DNA of 37,393 nucleotides from Leptospiraceae bacterium (GTDB lineage Bacteria > Spirochaetota > Leptospiria > Leptospirales > Leptospiraceae). Positions 13,631-28,987 of this stretch are shown in pieces (position 1 is the stretch's first letter; the number at the start of each line of letters is the position of its first letter). Where the stretch lies: NCBI GenBank assembly GCA_025360185.1, contig JANYCR010000318.1, forward strand, positions 1 through 37,393. Reading direction: 5' to 3'. The notes beneath the pieces were generated by a model. That model was not told the origin of the DNA, ran no database searches, and saw only the letters and a program-made list of their open reading frames with translations. The translations under genes were made by a program, and so were the position numbers.

Positions 13631-13748
13631 TTACCTATCCCCAATCTGTCTGTCATTGTAGAGATTTATATAAAGTAACCCCTTTCCGATTCGGAAAGGG
13701 GTGTCTTAGCAGATATTTAGCAATAACACAAAAATTGGGGATAGGTAA
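13631..13748. repeat. Palindromic element, copy A
   Basis: The ends TTACCTATCCCCAAT (13631-13645) and ATTGGGGATAGGTAA (13734-13748) are perfect 15-base inverted repeats. Inside is a second perfect hairpin, CCCCTTTCCGA, T, TCGGAAAGGGG (13679-13701). The element starts three bases after the stop of the Cys-rich gene. The internal segment TATTGTAGAGATTTATATAA-like sequence up to the hairpin recurs in copy B. It could act as a terminator or RNA 3' structure; there is no T run after the hairpin. Confidence 0.8.
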
Positions 13749-13770: not shown

Positions 13771-13886
13771 CTACCTATTCCCAATCCGCCTGCTATTGTA
13801 GAGATTTATATAAAGTAACCCCTTTCGGTATCGGAGAGGGGCTACCTCGTAGTATCCGACGCCATGTAAAGTGCGGGGAGAGGTAA
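13771..13886. repeat. Palindromic element, copy B
   Basis: A diverged direct copy of 13631-13748: CTACCTATTCCCAAT, then the shared ATTGTAGAGATTTATATAAA and GTAACCCCTTTC, then an imperfect hairpin (CCCCTTTCGGT/TCGGAGAGGGG). The right end GTGCGGGGAGAGGTAA abuts the kdsA stop codon and resembles the box beside sppA at 6604-6623. So the element family lies directly after stop codons of at least three genes. Confidence 0.75.
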
Positions 13887-23803: not shown

Positions 23804-24502
23804 CTATAATTTCAAAGTCTCCAACTCGCTAAACAATTCATCACTAGCAACTAATGCCAATTTATCTACAAGTTTCTGAAACTTAGTTCCTTGTTGACTC
23901 GACTCCATATCAATTTCAAAAGAAGTGATATTAGAATTACCTTTTGTGAATTTATAGAGTAAGATTTTTTTTAGCAAAGAAAAATGATTTTGAAACATAA
24001 ATAAAAGAGAAATTCCTGAATCAAGAAAAAATTCTTCGATGCGGGTAATAAGGATATGATCCCCGGCGAGGTTTGAGTATTGACATTCATCTAAAGCGAG
24101 TGAGTCAAAGAAATTTTCCCAGTCGTTTGCATTCCCGCGCTCTTTATTACGGCAGTCGTAGGTTTGACAAATAGATGCACCGTAAAAGGAAAAATTCTGG
24201 CTCTTCGGATCTCCTGTCTTAATCGGGTGAATCATGCAGCCAATTCGTTTTTTGTTGGGTTCGATATAACCCAGAAATGGACAGTTGTAAATAGTCGCAT
24301 CTTTTTTTGAATAAGAATTTTCTTTTTTTTCAAATTCTTCTCGGTACAAAATGACTGTTTCTTTTTTAGAGTAGTCTACATTCTCAGAAAAAAAATTAGT
24401 TCGTTCTTCTAGTATTTTTTTTAATTCTATATGCAGGCAATCTAGATTAAACAATCCGCAGCAGGCTCCACACGAAGAACCGTTTGATTGGCAAAGACTC
24501 AT
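23804..24502 (-). CDS. Cys-rich, YkgJ-like metal-binding-type protein, last gene of CHAT operon
   Basis: A 232-residue protein with ten cysteines in the first 140 residues: C4, C11, C14, C15, C22, then C74 (NCPFLGYI), C89 (GCMIHP), C112 and C117 (CQTYDC), C140. The SCGACCGLFN start and the later CPFL, GCxIHP and CxxYxC pieces follow the order of the YkgJ/zinc- or iron-chelating (CxxxCxxCC) family. The rest (150-232) is helical. The ATG overlaps the CHAT stop (ATGA, 24499-24502), so the two are translationally coupled. A metal cluster that senses redox state or oxygen is a possibility, not shown. Confidence 0.7.
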   Translation of the reverse strand: MSLCQSNGSSCGACCGLFNLDCLHIELKKILEERTNFFSENVDYSKKETVILYREEFEKKENSYSKKDATIYNCPFLGYIEPNKKRIGCMIHPIKTGDPKSQNFSFYGASICQTYDCRNKERGNANDWENFFDSLALDECQYSNLAGDHILITRIEEFFLDSGISLLFMFQNHFSLLKKILLYKFTKGNSNITSFEIDMESSQQGTKFQKLVDKLALVASDELFSELETLKL

Positions 24503-26310
24503 TTTAAAATAGAAAGCAATTGGCTAGTCTTGAGATTTACAAATTCGAGAGAAACTTCTTCTCGCACATTACCATTATTAATCGCGTTGATACCGAGAAG
24601 TGGAAGAATTGCTTTTTTGTTTTTATTCAGCAACACTACCCTTCCTCTAAATTCATCCAGTCGATTTAGAAAAAAACCAAATTGACTTGCATCAATTTCT
24701 GTTTCTTTTTTATTATAGCCGTAAAATAAATGATGTCTATCTGAATCATTTGAAATATAAAAGATAAAACATTTTTCAAATTCATTTAACTCAACTAGAA
24801 GATTTTCATAGTAATACTGCGATGTAATTAAATAACCTTCAAGACTTTCTACATCTAGAACGCCCGATCTAAATTTTTCAATCCAATTGATAATCTTGTA
24901 AATCAAGTCTTTATTCGAAAATAAAACTACTAGAAAAGATTCTACTACCATTGTAATTTGTAATTTCTTAAAATCTAAAATAGATTTAAAAATTAAATCC
25001 CACCAGATTCCGAGATTAAACTCACTTACCCGCTCATAGGACTGATTGAGTGCTTTGTATTTATGATCGCTTAACACTATTACTCCAATCAACTTGGAAA
25101 ATTCTTCAAAGCTTTCTGAAAATGCTTTCATTTTATTTTCACTCGAGTCAGATCTTTCATGCGAAATAAAATTTGCATAGGAAACAGCAATCGGTGTTGG
25201 ATAGGATTTTCTAATCATCAAAGGGTCTATGATTTTATTTTTATGACTACTACTTTTATTTAAAATGATTCTATCTGGATGACCATAAAGAGAATAGTTT
25301 GCCCAAATCACATCTAGCGGGTCATAATTTTTTCTAGCATACTCCCGTGCAATATGAAGAGACTCACCGAGACTCTTGTCACTAAATAGAGAAAGATAAA
25401 ATCGAATTGTAAAATCAAGTGTAGTCTCGTTATCGGCTACTTCCCATTTTGTGCCAATGAAGCTCATAATTCCAGACATCAGAAAGGAACTAGCAAAATC
25501 ATTCATGATATTCTTTACATTTTTTAGTCCGGCACTGCGAGAAGAATTACAGGAGTTGCTAAATACTAAATTTGTAGAGAACGCACTGTTTTTAATTTCG
25601 CGAGCCTTGAGAATTTTATCGCCTGATAAAAGCCAACCATTCTCCATCGGGTCACTTGAAAAAAATAAATGCCCCGCATAATGGATAATATTCTTTCCGC
25701 GGATCATCGATAGTAGCTTCAGCTTTGTAATCTGAGCGCCAGCAATAAACTCAATATCTAGAACAGACGCAGGAACTTTTTCTTTCAGAACTTGAAATAA
25801 AGTCTCGCCTTCTTTTTGCGCCCACTCTAAATCTTCTGTCGGATCTGCAATGATAAGCATCTTTAATTTTTGATTGCTTGCTTCTTGCAAAAATGTTTTA
25901 GAGCCTTTGATTGTTCGACCAATTAAAAAGCGATCGGATAAGAAGCAGTCACCGTCATAGAGTAACTCCCAGGGAATTTCTGCGAGGCTACTGTCTATAT
26001 TGAAGTGCAGATATTTTTCCGAAGTAGAACGTAAATTATCTGAAATAGAATTTGGGAAAAATTGATCGTAGAAAGTTTCACCCAGTATTTTTAATTCTTT
26101 TAATACATCAGGCTTAACTCTAAAATTGGATTCGTGATTGGATAAAAAATTATTCGATAGCTTAGAGAGATTTTCAATCTCCTTTACATATTCAGAAATT
26201 AAATCACTATCAATAGAAGATTGGATATGTGATTCCGAATGAAATTGTCCTGAATTCAGGAAATTAAAAATATTTACATTTCCAACCCTATCAATGAGTA
26301 AATCAATCAT
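24499..26310 (-). CDS. CHAT-domain (caspase-like) cysteine protease
   Basis: A 603-residue protein. Residues about 95-350 are a CHAT domain: FNIDSSLAEIPWELLYDGD (103-121) with FLSDRFLIGR, KMLIIADPTEDLEWAQKEGE, the His motif IIHYAGHLFF with His214, GWLLSGDKILKAREI, and the Cys motif LVFSNSCNSSRSAG with Cys254, forty residues on. FIGTKWEVADNETTLDF and the terminal LYGHPDRIIL complete the fold. So the catalytic pair looks intact. Residues 1-95 are helical, with no TPR repeats. Residues 365-603 are another domain starting SYPTPIAVSYANF, similar in my memory to C-terminal domains fused to NTPase or signalling modules in other bacteria. It lies three bases after the gene at 26314 and overlaps the Cys-rich gene by four. 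Confidence 0.88.
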   Translation of the reverse strand: MIDLLIDRVGNVNIFNFLNSGQFHSESHIQSSIDSDLISEYVKEIENLSKLSNNFLSNHESNFRVKPDVLKELKILGETFYDQFFPNSISDNLRSTSEKYLHFNIDSSLAEIPWELLYDGDCFLSDRFLIGRTIKGSKTFLQEASNQKLKMLIIADPTEDLEWAQKEGETLFQVLKEKVPASVLDIEFIAGAQITKLKLLSMIRGKNIIHYAGHLFFSSDPMENGWLLSGDKILKAREIKNSAFSTNLVFSNSCNSSRSAGLKNVKNIMNDFASSFLMSGIMSFIGTKWEVADNETTLDFTIRFYLSLFSDKSLGESLHIAREYARKNYDPLDVIWANYSLYGHPDRIILNKSSSHKNKIIDPLMIRKSYPTPIAVSYANFISHERSDSSENKMKAFSESFEEFSKLIGVIVLSDHKYKALNQSYERVSEFNLGIWWDLIFKSILDFKKLQITMVVESFLVVLFSNKDLIYKIINWIEKFRSGVLDVESLEGYLITSQYYYENLLVELNEFEKCFIFYISNDSDRHHLFYGYNKKETEIDASQFGFFLNRLDEFRGRVVLLNKNKKAILPLLGINAINNGNVREEVSLEFVNLKTSQLLSILK

Positions 26311-26313
26311 CCA

Positions 26314-27054
26314 TTACAGTTTATCTGCAAAAAGGGATAAGTCAAATCTTTTTGAAATATTCTTACCTGTGAACTCAATATTGTATACGCCTTCTTTAAG
26401 CCCTGAAAAAGAAACAAGACCCTCGGAATTAATATTGCTAGAATAAATGAAACGGTTATCCTTTCTGAGATTGACCTGGTTATAGAGTGCGACAAAGGAA
26501 GAGTCAAACTTAACACTTAAGTATGCCTCGTTTTCATTTTCTTGGATTACTTGATAGACTAGACTACCTTGGTCTGTCTTCTCTAGCATACTGATGCTTT
26601 GTGGAATTGTATTAATAGAATTTCTGACAGATGGAATCGTTAGCTCTAATGGAGTAATCAAAGATTCACTGAAAAAAGAACCAAGTAGCTTCATTCCAGC
26701 TTTTCCAAAACGGATGACTAGTTTATCTGCTTCTTTTTGAGAAGCTAAATCAGCTTCCATGTAATTTTGCAGATAAAGAGGAAGTCGATTATTTTTTTCT
26801 TTAGAGATGCGAGAGTTAGCTTTTGCAATATCTAAATTCTCAAAAAAACTAGAATCACCATCTATTAATGAATCTAAATATTTAGCATTCTCATATTTTA
26901 TCGTAGAATGAATAGATTCTTCGATTTCCCTAAGCTCAGTAAAGTGGGAATCATTTTTTAGGGCGAGATCATATACCTTTTCGTCTTCATTTAGAAACAA
27001 ACCAAGTATATCTTCTTGATTATTTGCTGCGTTAGATTCATTCTTCGGATTCAT
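26314..27054 (-). CDS. Unknown cytosolic protein between sigma factor and CHAT protease
   Basis: A 246-residue acidic protein with no signal peptide or membrane helix. Residues 1-110 are helical and charged (EDILGLFLNEDEKVYDLALK at 14-33). There is a Gly-containing link RFGKAGMKLLGSFFSESLI (114-132), then a beta-rich end whose last 60 residues (SSNINSEGLVSFSGLKEGVY, NIEFTGKNISKRFDLSLF) resemble a carboxypeptidase-regulatory-like/Ig-type domain. Its place after the sigma gene is that of an anti-sigma factor, but it lacks the membrane helix and zinc motif of the common types. AGAGG lies seven bases before the ATG. It is the natural candidate for the CHAT substrate or the sigma partner; this is inference. 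Confidence 0.65.
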   Translation of the reverse strand: MNPKNESNAANNQEDILGLFLNEDEKVYDLALKNDSHFTELREIEESIHSTIKYENAKYLDSLIDGDSSFFENLDIAKANSRISKEKNNRLPLYLQNYMEADLASQKEADKLVIRFGKAGMKLLGSFFSESLITPLELTIPSVRNSINTIPQSISMLEKTDQGSLVYQVIQENENEAYLSVKFDSSFVALYNQVNLRKDNRFIYSSNINSEGLVSFSGLKEGVYNIEFTGKNISKRFDLSLFADKL

Positions 27055-27093
27055 AGCTAACCTCTTGGTAATTAGAGACTTATTAAATATATG

Positions 27094-27996
27094 TTATATT
27101 TCATATTTTGCAATTTTTTTTTGAATTTTTTCTAAGACTCTCTGAAGGGAAATACTTACACCACCCTCTGGTATCCTTAAAAGTTGAGCGATAACTCGAT
27201 AAGGAGTTCGTGTAATAAAATTTCCTTTGTTCTTTTTTTCTATGAGCTTTCTTCGTTGTTCATATTTCTTATCAATAGAAATTTGAACTTTATCATAATT
27301 TGGTAAATTATCATCGAATACAAGCGGCTTCTCTTTCTCTTGTTGGCGTTTTAGCTCTAGAATATTCATATAGATGGAAGCAATTTTGTCCTCGCTTTCC
27401 AAAACCTGTATTTCTTTTTCACTTAGAGAATCTCGAATCGAAATAATTTGTTTTTGTAATTCGTCTTTTGAAAATCCTGTTTTTGCAAGTAAATAATCAA
27501 TTTCCTCTGTGTTTAGATTTAAATAATAGATATAGGCAAGCTTAAAAATAATTCGATTCTCAATTTTTATTTCCGATAGCGCGGATTGAAATTGGCTAGA
27601 TGCAAAATGCGCCTCTTTTTGTAAATCTGACTTTAGATCAGGCTCATTTTCAATCGAATAATACTCTACTCCGTCTGCATTGACCTTGACGCTAGAAACA
27701 ATTTTTAGCTCTCGCTTATTTCGTTTCCAGTCAATGAGCATATTCCGAAGAACCGTATAAAGCCAGGTTTTAAATCCAGACTTCCCAACGAAAGTCTGAA
27801 ATCGCTTACCAGACTTTAGTCGCTCATAGGCATAAATAAAAAACTCGCTTGCATCGTCTTCTTCTAAATGAAAAACTCGAATAGGAAAATTATAAATATC
27901 CTCTGAAAATTCTTCAAAGAATTTTTTAAGTGATTCTGTATTGCCAGTGGCGCAGGACTGCACCAAAGCAAATATTTCTTCCTGTGATAATTTCAT
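27094..27996 (-). CDS. ECF-like sigma-70 factor with long insert, first gene of CHAT operon
   Basis: A 300-residue protein. Region 2 is visible at about 25-95: FFEEFSEDIYNFPIRVFHLE, then DDASEFFIYAYERLKS and FKTWLYTVLRNMLIDWKRNKR, the usual core- and -10-binding helices. Region 4 lies at the end: YRVIAQLLRIPEGGVSISLQR (about 264-284) fits the -35-binding helix-turn-helix (compare IAxxLxIPEGTVKSRLxR). The 160 residues between are much longer than the short linker of a normal 170-200-residue ECF sigma and contain helical, Lys/Glu-rich sequence (YMNILELKRQQEKEKPLVFD). The insert could be a regulatory domain. The gene is 73 bases from the divergent M23 gene; no sure promoter was found. Confidence 0.82.
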   Translation of the reverse strand: MKLSQEEIFALVQSCATGNTESLKKFFEEFSEDIYNFPIRVFHLEEDDASEFFIYAYERLKSGKRFQTFVGKSGFKTWLYTVLRNMLIDWKRNKRELKIVSSVKVNADGVEYYSIENEPDLKSDLQKEAHFASSQFQSALSEIKIENRIIFKLAYIYYLNLNTEEIDYLLAKTGFSKDELQKQIISIRDSLSEKEIQVLESEDKIASIYMNILELKRQQEKEKPLVFDDNLPNYDKVQISIDKKYEQRRKLIEKKNKGNFITRTPYRVIAQLLRIPEGGVSISLQRVLEKIQKKIAKYEI

Positions 27997-28069
27997 ACTA
28001 GTCAGAATTGGTACTATAAATTTTTAGTTTCTATAGTCATTTACAAAAAAATAAAATGAGATTATTTTT

Positions 28070-28987
28070 ATGAAAAAAATCCTTTTACTCCTCTCGATTC
28101 TTCCTATTTGCCTGGTTCTAGGACAAGAAAGCACAAAGCAGAAATTCCCGGACGGATTCATCTGGCCTGTTGGTGGCGAGAATATTGAAGTAAAACTATC
28201 CTCCCTGTTTGGCGAATCAAGAGGAGATCATTTTCACAACGGGGTGGATGTTTCCTCTGATAACGAAAAAGTTTCTTCTATTGAAAAAGGAACCATTATC
28301 TACAGCCATTACAGTTCAGACAACCCATTTGAAAATGAGGGAGGCAGCGGAAATAGCGTCTGGATTCTGCATGACAATGATATTCTCTCAGCCTATTATC
28401 ATTTGAAAGACGGAAGATCACCGGAAATTTTAGAGAAACGATTCATACAAAAAGGCGATGCCATTGGCAAAACAGGAAACACTGGACACTCAAGCGGCTC
28501 GCACTTACATTTCGTAATCGCAAAAGACCAGGGCAGAAAAATCATCGACCCATTAAAAATTCTCCCACCGGTCAAAGACACAAAATCTCCGACCATCAGC
28601 AGTTTAATTCTTACGATTGGAAAAAATATAACGTACGTCAACGATGGAGATTCATTTAATTCTTCGAGCAATTTTCCAATCACTGTAGACATAGCGGATA
28701 CAGGCGAACGCAAAGGACAAAGACGTGGTGTAAAATCAATTCAATTTATAGTAAATAATAAAGTATATAAAAAAAGTAATTTTAATGAGCTTAGCCTTGT
28801 GAATAGTATTTGGCAAAATGAAGACGGTCTATCGTTTAACGATCTTTTCTTTGAGAGCCATTACTATATAGGAGATTTAAAATTTATTTCAGGGGATAAT
28901 ACCATTTCTATCACGGCGGTAGATTTTAATAACAACAAAACTGAAAAGACTTTTACATTTTATGTAAATAAAATTCAGAAGAAGTAA
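28070..28987 (+). CDS. Exported M23-family peptidase (LytM-type)
   Basis: A 305-residue protein with a signal peptide (MKKILLLLSILPICLVLG, cleavage near 18-20). Residues about 30-165 are an M23 metallopeptidase domain with zinc ligands His56 and Asp60 in HFHNGVD and His145-x-His147 in SGSHLHF; His111 in YYHLKDG is the usual catalytic His. GKTGNTGHSSGSHLHF is canonical. The rest (170-305) is beta-rich, possibly Ig-like. It should cut peptidoglycan cross-links in the periplasm, in growth or division. It is divergent from the sigma-CHAT operon with only 82 bases between coding regions' ends. Confidence 0.9.
   Translation: MKKILLLLSILPICLVLGQESTKQKFPDGFIWPVGGENIEVKLSSLFGESRGDHFHNGVDVSSDNEKVSSIEKGTIIYSHYSSDNPFENEGGSGNSVWILHDNDILSAYYHLKDGRSPEILEKRFIQKGDAIGKTGNTGHSSGSHLHFVIAKDQGRKIIDPLKILPPVKDTKSPTISSLILTIGKNITYVNDGDSFNSSSNFPITVDIADTGERKGQRRGVKSIQFIVNNKVYKKSNFNELSLVNSIWQNEDGLSFNDLFFESHYYIGDLKFISGDNTISITAVDFNNNKTEKTFTFYVNKIQKK

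What the first reader, a model, noticed from the sequence alone, without database searches (positions are those of the whole stretch)
23804..27996. A sigma factor-CHAT protease operon that may be a stand-alone proteolytic transcription switch
Four tightly packed genes: an ECF-like sigma factor with a 160-residue insert, an unknown cytosolic protein, a CHAT protease with His214/Cys254, and a Cys-rich YkgJ-like protein coupled by ATGA overlap. CHAT protease plus ECF sigma plus a middle protein is the toolkit of type III-E CRISPR (Csx29, RpoE, Csx30), where the protease cuts an inhibitor of the sigma factor. Here there is no CRISPR array and no guide effector in view, so the input signal must be different, perhaps sensed by the CHAT C-terminal domain or the Cys-rich protein. 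By analogy the middle protein (26314-27054) could be the sigma inhibitor and protease substrate.
Basis: partly seen in the sequence, partly recalled or inferred. Interest (0 to 1): 0.85.

Follow-up and report, generated by a model that had tools for sequence, protein, structure and literature searches.

The report
CHAT protease–sigma factor–anti-sigma switch
A spirochaete operon pairs a gene-switching sigma factor, a protein descended from zinc-binding inhibitors of such factors, and a caspase-like protease that probably cuts or controls the inhibitor; the same trio recurs in distant spirochaetes without any CRISPR, so a protease-operated gene switch may be old and general.

Summary
In detail: four minus-strand genes, sigma (27996-27094), middle protein (27054-26314), CHAT (26310-24499) and a Cys-rich protein (24502-23804), are packed 39, 3 and -4 nt apart. 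The middle protein is very probably the anti-sigma factor. Its orthologues in sister families keep the zinc anti-sigma (ZAS) motif C-x24/26-H-x3-C-x2-C, and homologues in distant spirochaetes pass the Pfam zf-HC2 cut-off. In the window's order (Leptospirales) the zinc ligands are lost.

All four genes are near-universal single-copy genes of the class. In Leptospiraceae, L. interrogans included (sigma = LIC_10225, an 'unclassified' ECF), sigma, middle and CHAT adjoin. In sister families CHAT lies elsewhere, but outside the class CHAT-sigma-anti-sigma operons recur in at least three families, which argues strongly for a functional trio. Branch-rate covariation links middle-CHAT and sigma-CHAT even where unlinked, moderately and partly dependent on one fast clade; the Cys-rich protein does not covary. 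His214/Cys254 are invariant (33/33).

Best model: CHAT proteolysis of a soluble anti-sigma frees the sigma factor. Cleavage, contacts and signal are inferred. It is not type III-E CRISPR by any defining feature tested. The four-gene unit is better read as a three-gene core plus an accessory.

The parts
27094..27996 (-). ECF-type sigma factor, 300 aa, with about 110 net extra residues inside region 4; orthologue of L. interrogans LIC_10225 / WP_001054050.1
   Evidence: ORF; TIGR02937 105.3 bits vs cut-off 42.9; class-wide single copy; annotated orthologue, listed as unclassified ECF in PMC12655853
26314..27054 (-). Middle protein, 246 aa: inferred soluble anti-sigma factor; helical N-terminal part whose zinc ligands are lost, and a beta-sandwich C-terminal domain (about 110-243)
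   Evidence: ORF; ZAS motif in orthologues; zf-HC2 above cut-off in 4 of 6 and matched in all 6 homologues outside the class, 5 of 6 above cut-off; C-terminal homology, hhalign 91.6%, E 8e-7; AF2 model confident for about residues 151-240
24499..26310 (-). CHAT (caspase/separase-like) cysteine protease, 603 aa: CHAT domain about 76-343, C-terminal region 350-603 of unknown function
   Evidence: ORF; PF12770 92.5 bits; single-copy in the class
25669..25671 (-). codon of catalytic His214
   Evidence: His in 33/33 full-length class homologues; also in homologues outside the class
25549..25551 (-). codon of catalytic Cys254
   Evidence: Cys in 33/33 full-length class homologues; also in homologues outside the class
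23804..24502 (-). Cys-rich (CxxCxxCC/YkgJ-like) protein, 232 aa; invariant Cys 4, 11, 14, 15, 74, 89, 112, 117 and His92; accessory, starts inside the CHAT stop (ATGA)
   Evidence: ORF; invariant columns over 16 relatives; distribution; no Pfam hit of its own
28070..28987 (+). divergent M23-type metallopeptidase gene, conserved neighbour of the sigma gene in both families of the order; part of the context, not of the switch
   Evidence: neighbourhood maps; annotated as M23 in the L. interrogans locus
28013..28040 (-). possible sigma-70-type promoter of the operon (ATGACT-16-TATAGT)
   Evidence: pattern match at background rate; near-identical in the close relative L062; weak

Best explanation
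The operon encodes a cytosolic, protease-gated transcription switch. The middle protein is a soluble anti-sigma factor, of the zinc anti-sigma (ZAS) lineage, that holds the ECF sigma factor inactive. When its signal arrives the CHAT protease cuts the anti-sigma (or cuts and marks it for further degradation), freeing the sigma factor to redirect RNA polymerase. In Leptospirales the anti-sigma has lost its zinc ligands and so cannot use the usual zinc/thiol redox release, which leaves proteolysis as the likely route. The Cys-rich protein, co-translated with CHAT, is an accessory, perhaps a metal or redox input for the CHAT C-terminal region. Shown: genes, operon layout, anti-sigma ancestry, conserved dyad, recurrent gene association. 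Suggested: rate covariation. Inferred: contacts, cleavage, signal, regulon.
For: Operon in 8/8 family genomes and in L. interrogans. ZAS motif C-x24/26-H-x3-C-x2-C in middle-protein orthologues of L093, L094, L099, L147, L148, L151, and HxxxCxxC in L144. Contiguous CHAT-sigma-anti-sigma operons outside the class in L247, L251, L252, L253, L256, plus CHAT-sigma at a contig end in L250 and sigma-anti-sigma divergent from a TPR-CHAT in L248. Their anti-sigmas pass zf-HC2 in 5 of 6, share the C-terminal domain, and their sigmas share the insert. CHAT dyad 33/33. Rate covariation where CHAT is unlinked: middle-CHAT r = 0.62 (2 of 204 control comparisons as high), sigma-CHAT 0.49, positive-control pair sigma-middle 0.47; the equally fast Cys-rich protein shows none (first version).
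Against: No contact or cleavage was testable: the structure tool does monomers, and the CHAT model was poor (pLDDT 45). In sister families CHAT sits in unrelated contexts. Covariation is moderate: without the fast genus g6, middle-CHAT falls to 0.37-0.49 and sigma-CHAT to 0.32-0.37 (13-31 of 204 controls as high), and most controls are slow ribosomal proteins. Class and non-class CHATs join at only 83/80 support, and one clade that also includes L248 is rejected. In L. interrogans pLiSL25 the CHAT ORF ends at 403 aa and no Cys-rich gene follows, though sigma and anti-sigma are intact.
Confidence: 0.55

Rival explanations
1. The sigma factor and its anti-sigma form a self-sufficient pair. CHAT serves the same stress response but as an effector (cutting other proteins) or as a sigma target, not as the release protease.
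For: sigma and anti-sigma stay adjacent where CHAT has left; zinc-ligand ZAS anti-sigmas outside the class could release by redox alone, and lie next to rubrerythrin and 8-oxoguanine glycosylase genes; L. interrogans keeps sigma and anti-sigma with a shortened CHAT.
Against: CHAT precedes sigma and anti-sigma in one operon outside the class, an arrangement more typical of a regulator than of one target among many; the anti-sigma has lost its zinc ligands in Leptospirales; rate covariation is strongest between CHAT and the anti-sigma itself in unlinked families.
Confidence: 0.25
2. CHAT cuts or activates the sigma factor, for example at its inserted region, rather than the anti-sigma.
For: the sigma has a conserved insert inside region 4, shared with homologues outside the class; sigma-CHAT covariation exists.
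Against: a recognisable anti-sigma is encoded beside the sigma or elsewhere in nearly every genome; in most subsets covariation is as strong or stronger for anti-sigma-CHAT.
Confidence: 0.1
3. The four genes are merely neighbours: two unrelated core gene pairs that became adjacent in the ancestor of Leptospiraceae.
For: each pair has its own conserved context in sister families: M23/dnaE or glmS for sigma-middle; pdxJ...tsaC-yebC-ruvC-ruvA for CHAT-Cys-rich.
Against: CHAT-sigma-anti-sigma is contiguous again in several families outside the class; covariation in unlinked families.
Confidence: 0.1

Closest known systems
[quoted passage not shown] PMC10028731)
   Same: CHAT-family protease, ECF-type sigma factor and a third protein proposed to inhibit the sigma and be cut by the protease.
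   Different: No array in the window and no CRISPR effector among the neighbours; CHAT here is 603 aa and not fused to TPRs; the middle protein (246 aa, ZAS lineage plus beta-sandwich) has no detectable similarity to solved Csx30; chromosomal core genes of a class, not a defence locus.
ECF54 sigma factors with CHAT/subtilase/carboxypeptidase neighbours (as reviewed in PMC8999054)
   Same: ECF sigma factor encoded near CHAT-domain proteins; proteolytic control proposed.
   Different: ECF54 is described as having no anti-sigma factor, and the review's example is from Geodermatophilus (an actinobacterium by my own knowledge); here an anti-sigma is encoded directly after the sigma. The L. interrogans orthologue LIC_10225 is listed as unclassified (PMC12655853).
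Soluble ZAS anti-sigma/ECF pairs (RsrA/SigR, ChrR/RpoE; PMC8999054)
   Same: ECF sigma with a soluble anti-sigma; ZAS motif in the homologues; ChrR turnover by proteolysis has been reported.
   Different: In Leptospirales the zinc ligands are gone; the C-terminal domain is an Ig-like beta-sandwich rather than a cupin; a dedicated CHAT protease is encoded with the pair.
Caspase-EACC2 / ECF sigma / DUF1822 neighbourhoods (PMC8195603)
   Same: Caspase-superfamily protease, ECF sigma and a third protein in one neighbourhood.
   Different: There the protease is described as caspase plus an EACC2 module with a TPR protein (DUF1822); here CHAT plus a ZAS-lineage anti-sigma. No homology was tested.

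Membership tests
ECF sigma factor | match to sigma70-ECF superfamily model above curated cut-off | tested here: met
   TIGR02937 105.3 bits vs 42.9
ECF sigma factor | compact sigma2-sigma4 architecture without a large insert | tested here: not met
   165 model positions spread over 274 residues; insert conserved in relatives; so an aberrant ECF-type sigma, filed here as ECF-like
CHAT peptidase (PF12770) | domain score above gathering cut-off | tested here: met
   92.5 bits vs 24
CHAT peptidase (PF12770) | His and Cys catalytic pair | tested here: met
   His214 and Cys254 in 33/33 class homologues, and in the homologues outside the class
ZAS anti-sigma factor | zinc ligands (H/C)...H-x3-C-x2-C in the N-terminal domain | tested here: not met
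   absent from the window protein; present in orthologues L093, L094, L099, L147, L148, L151 and in A7 homologues. The window protein is therefore called 'of the ZAS lineage', not a ZAS protein
ZAS anti-sigma factor | homology to zf-HC2 anti-sigma zinc finger | tested here: inconclusive
   homologues outside the class pass PF13490 (5 of 6); class orthologues and the window protein do not; the detected link between the two groups covers the C-terminal domain only
ZAS anti-sigma factor | encoded directly downstream of its ECF sigma gene | tested here: met
   all mapped families except genus g21
ZAS anti-sigma factor | binds and inhibits the sigma factor | not testable with these tools
   no complex prediction or wet assay available
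Type III-E CRISPR protease system | Cas7-11 (gRAMP) effector and CRISPR array in the locus | tested here: not met
   no array in the window, no effector recognised among genes of the mapped loci; the whole genome was not searched for one
Type III-E CRISPR protease system | TPR-CHAT (Csx29) architecture | tested here: not met
   no TPR match in Pfam scan; no convincing similarity to solved Csx29
Type III-E CRISPR protease system | Csx30 | tested here: not met
   middle-protein profile finds no such PDB chain at E up to 10
YkgJ/CxxCxxCC family (PF03692) | match above curated cut-off | tested here: not met
   none for the window protein; 5 of 16 relatives at best E = 0.016
ECF54 | assignment by ECF classification models; subtilase and carboxypeptidase-domain neighbours | not tested
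   models not available here

The most novel reading that the evidence does not exclude
Spirochaetes carry an old, CRISPR-independent switch in which a CHAT caspase-like protease releases an ECF sigma factor by cutting a soluble anti-sigma; in Leptospirales loss of the anti-sigma's zinc ligands made proteolysis the only release route. Type III-E CRISPR would then be one case in which such a protease-sigma-inhibitor circuit was coupled to an RNA-guided sensor.
Probability: 0.4. Interest if true: 0.82.

Novelty: new variant of a known kind. Interest (0 to 1): 0.64.

Why it matters
To my knowledge, and in the papers found here, a CHAT protease acting on a sigma-factor inhibitor has been shown biochemically only in type III-E CRISPR. 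A CRISPR-free version conserved through a whole class, and retained or rebuilt in distant spirochaete families, would show that protease-gated sigma release is a general bacterial logic that CRISPR borrowed or converged on. It also gives a predicted anti-sigma and a predicted releasing protease to LIC_10225, an L. interrogans ECF sigma factor listed as unclassified (PMC12655853), and the prediction can be tested with a few co-expression experiments.

Tried and rejected
Type III-E membership: rejected, no defining feature tested was met. Middle protein by direct Pfam/NCBIfam/PDB search: nothing; its identity came only through relatives. Pfam/NCBIfam on class orthologues with visible ZAS motifs: no zf-HC2 hit, so the motif alone was not relied on until homologues outside the class passed the cut-off. 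Foldseek of the middle protein: only Ig-like folds at E about 1e-3, none below it; taken as 'beta-sandwich' and no more. CHAT model too poor to search. ECF-type promoter upstream of the sigma genes: nothing shared beyond close relatives; sigma-70-like matches are near background. First covariation test with pairwise distances gave sigma-CHAT 0.94, but with sparse controls and non-independent pairs; replaced by branch-wise tests, which are much more moderate. Extra fast controls from the mraY region failed: only MraY was shared. A search with the EF-G family was of no use. Anti-phage library: no relevant hit. The PMC8055020 table entry LBJ_RS15290 'CHAT domain-containing protein' could not be shown to be this gene and is not used.
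Full report
WHAT IS THERE. The window is one whole contig (G000:C589) of an incomplete 5.8-Mb genome whose close relatives are named Leptospiraceae MAGs. The sigma factor passes the ECF model TIGR02937 (105.3 bits against 42.9), CHAT passes PF12770 (92.5 against 24), and the other two match nothing convincing by themselves.

CORRECTIONS TO THE READING. The sigma insert is nearer 110 net residues than 160: TIGR02937's 165 positions cover 274 residues. It lies inside region 4, ahead of the last helix-turn-helix segment, and is shared with relatives in and outside the class. 'YkgJ-like' is a resemblance only: 5 of 16 relatives touch PF03692 at best E = 0.016, although eight Cys and His92 are invariant in 16 aligned relatives.

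DISTRIBUTION. In 100 relatives each of the four is, with few gaps, a single-copy gene of the window's class: families f1 (own) to f6. Genome sizes and contig counts suggest that G032 and G014 are Turneriella and Leptonema, but that is my guess from sizes. Outside the class, only two genomes carry a sigma match at E <= 1e-20, and none a middle-protein match at E <= 0.001.

NEIGHBOURHOODS. In f1 all eight genomes have middle-CHAT-Cys-rich contiguous, with sigma in front wherever the contig reaches. In f2 the two pairs are apart: sigma-middle beside a divergent M23 peptidase gene and often dnaE; CHAT-Cys-rich in pdxJ-CHAT-Cys-rich-tsaC-yebC-ruvC-ruvA. In f3-f6 sigma-middle often follows glmS, CHAT follows an acyl-CoA-synthetase-like gene, and the Cys-rich gene lies elsewhere; in genus g21 sigma and middle are apart too. 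Most gene names in this paragraph are my reading of the translated sequences; M23 and dnaE are also annotated in the L. interrogans record. The four-gene operon is therefore a Leptospiraceae feature, while sigma-middle is the class-wide unit.

LEPTOSPIRA ITSELF. An L. interrogans record (pLiSL25) has gatB, dnaE, M23 (divergent), sigma, a 242-aa middle protein, and then a CHAT ORF of 403 aa that stops after the CHAT domain; no Cys-rich gene follows. The CHAT ORF is not in PLSDB's gene table. Its sigma, WP_001054050.1, is the protein listed as LIC_10225, 301 aa, 'unclassified' among the 11 ECF sigmas of L. interrogans (PMC12655853).

THE MIDDLE PROTEIN IS AN ANTI-SIGMA BY DESCENT. No library recognises the window protein. 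But orthologues in f3-f6 begin with C-x24/26-H-x3-C-x2-C (L093, L094, L099, L147, L148, L151) or H-x3-C-x2-C (L144), the ligand pattern of zinc anti-sigma domains, in a protein encoded directly after an ECF sigma. In f1 and f2 the pattern is broken. Homologues outside the class pass zf-HC2 in 5 of 6 cases and touch NCBIfam anti-sigma models. Their profile aligns with the class profile over the C-terminal domain (hhalign 91.6%, E = 8e-7). That alignment does not itself cover the N-terminus, so the N-terminal homology rests on the shared motif and position. The AF2 model (four sequences) gives a confident C-terminal beta-sandwich and a low-confidence helical N-terminus; Foldseek adds only a vague Ig-like resemblance.

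THE TRIO OUTSIDE THE CLASS. I pulled the places where CHAT or sigma profiles matched in other spirochaete families. CHAT-sigma-anti-sigma is contiguous, on one strand, in L247 and L252 (f27), L251 and L253 (f9) and L256 (f17). L250 (f9) shows CHAT-sigma at a contig end. L248 (f8) has sigma-anti-sigma divergent from a different CHAT with a long N-terminal region that I read as TPR-like. His and Cys are kept in all of them. Neighbours include tsaE and tsaB, rubrerythrin and 8-oxoguanine DNA glycosylase, an oxidative-damage theme that fits soluble ZAS anti-sigmas, which normally answer oxidative stress (PMC8999054). A CHAT-domain tree joins class CHATs and the f9/f27/f17 trio CHATs at 83/80 support; one clade that also includes L248 is rejected (p = 0.0004), so the f8 pairing is probably an independent coupling. 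Several other CHATs (L249, L254, L255, L258-L262) have no sigma beside them, so not every CHAT goes with a sigma.

RATE COVARIATION. On a species tree from 16 control proteins, branch lengths per gene were fitted on the fixed topology and residuals from the control mean correlated. Without f1, so that shared location cannot explain a link between CHAT and the pair: middle-CHAT r = 0.62 (p = 0.001; 2 of 204 control comparisons as high), sigma-CHAT 0.49 (8 of 204), sigma-middle 0.47 (9 of 204). The Cys-rich protein, as fast as the middle protein, gives r = -0.07 with CHAT, 0.09 with middle and 0.12 with sigma. The signal weakens without the fast genus g6 (middle-CHAT 0.37-0.49, sigma-CHAT 0.32-0.37) and middle-CHAT falls to 0.29 without f3-f6. 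I tested six pairs and several subsets, the controls are few and mostly slow, and the p values ignore this. I treat it as supporting, not decisive. An earlier pairwise-distance version overstated it.

MECHANISM. Inferred, in order of support: the middle protein inhibits the sigma (likely); CHAT acts on that pair (likely, from recurrent operons); the action is cleavage of the anti-sigma (plausible, from the conserved dyad and the CASP precedent, PMC10028731); zinc-ligand loss in Leptospirales moved release from redox to proteolysis (speculative); the Cys-rich protein and the CHAT C-terminal region go together on the input side (speculative; both are missing at the one L. interrogans locus seen).

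COMPARISON. It may work like the Csx29-Csx30-CASP-sigma circuit but is not a member: no array in the window, no effector recognised in the mapped loci, no TPR-CHAT, no detectable Csx30 relation. ECF54 sigmas with CHAT neighbours are known, but are described as lacking an anti-sigma (PMC8999054). I found no paper in the held library that describes this trio in spirochaetes, which is a statement about that library only.

Noticed in passing
L152:9814-11025 (L. interrogans pLiSL25): CHAT ORF ends at 403 aa, right after the CHAT domain, and no Cys-rich gene follows; PLSDB lists no gene there. The C-terminal region and the Cys-rich gene are missing together.
   Followed up: partly
L152: A record labelled plasmid carries gatB, dnaE, thiD and a sigma identical in accession to LIC_10225, listed on chromosome I of another strain; it may be a chromosomal stretch or a chromosome-derived replicon.
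   Followed up: no
L247:7289-8671, L251:6537-7880, L253:2974-4395: N-termini of the CHAT proteins outside the class weakly resemble EVE or Dev_Cell_Death (PUA-like) domains, E = 0.0015 to 0.0054, below the curated cut-offs; a possible sensor domain that the window's CHAT lacks.
   Followed up: partly
L247, L250, L251, L252, L253: CHAT-sigma operons sit directly after tsaE-tsaB, and in family f2 CHAT-Cys-rich directly precedes a tsaC-like gene: t6A tRNA-modification genes next to CHAT in two different arrangements.
   Followed up: no
L251:3947-5136, L253:977-1513, L247:5130-5795, L252:8522-9172: Rubrerythrin and/or 8-oxoguanine DNA glycosylase genes follow the ZAS anti-sigma genes, suggesting oxidative damage as the ancestral signal.
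   Followed up: partly
window 13632-13701 and 13772-13841: Two 70-nt direct repeats, 87% alike, each ending in a GC-rich hairpin-like sequence.
   Followed up: no
L083:8239-16814: In G042 (genus g21) sigma lies about 5.6 kb downstream of CHAT on the same strand although the middle-protein gene is on another contig; elsewhere in that genus they are far apart.
   Followed up: no
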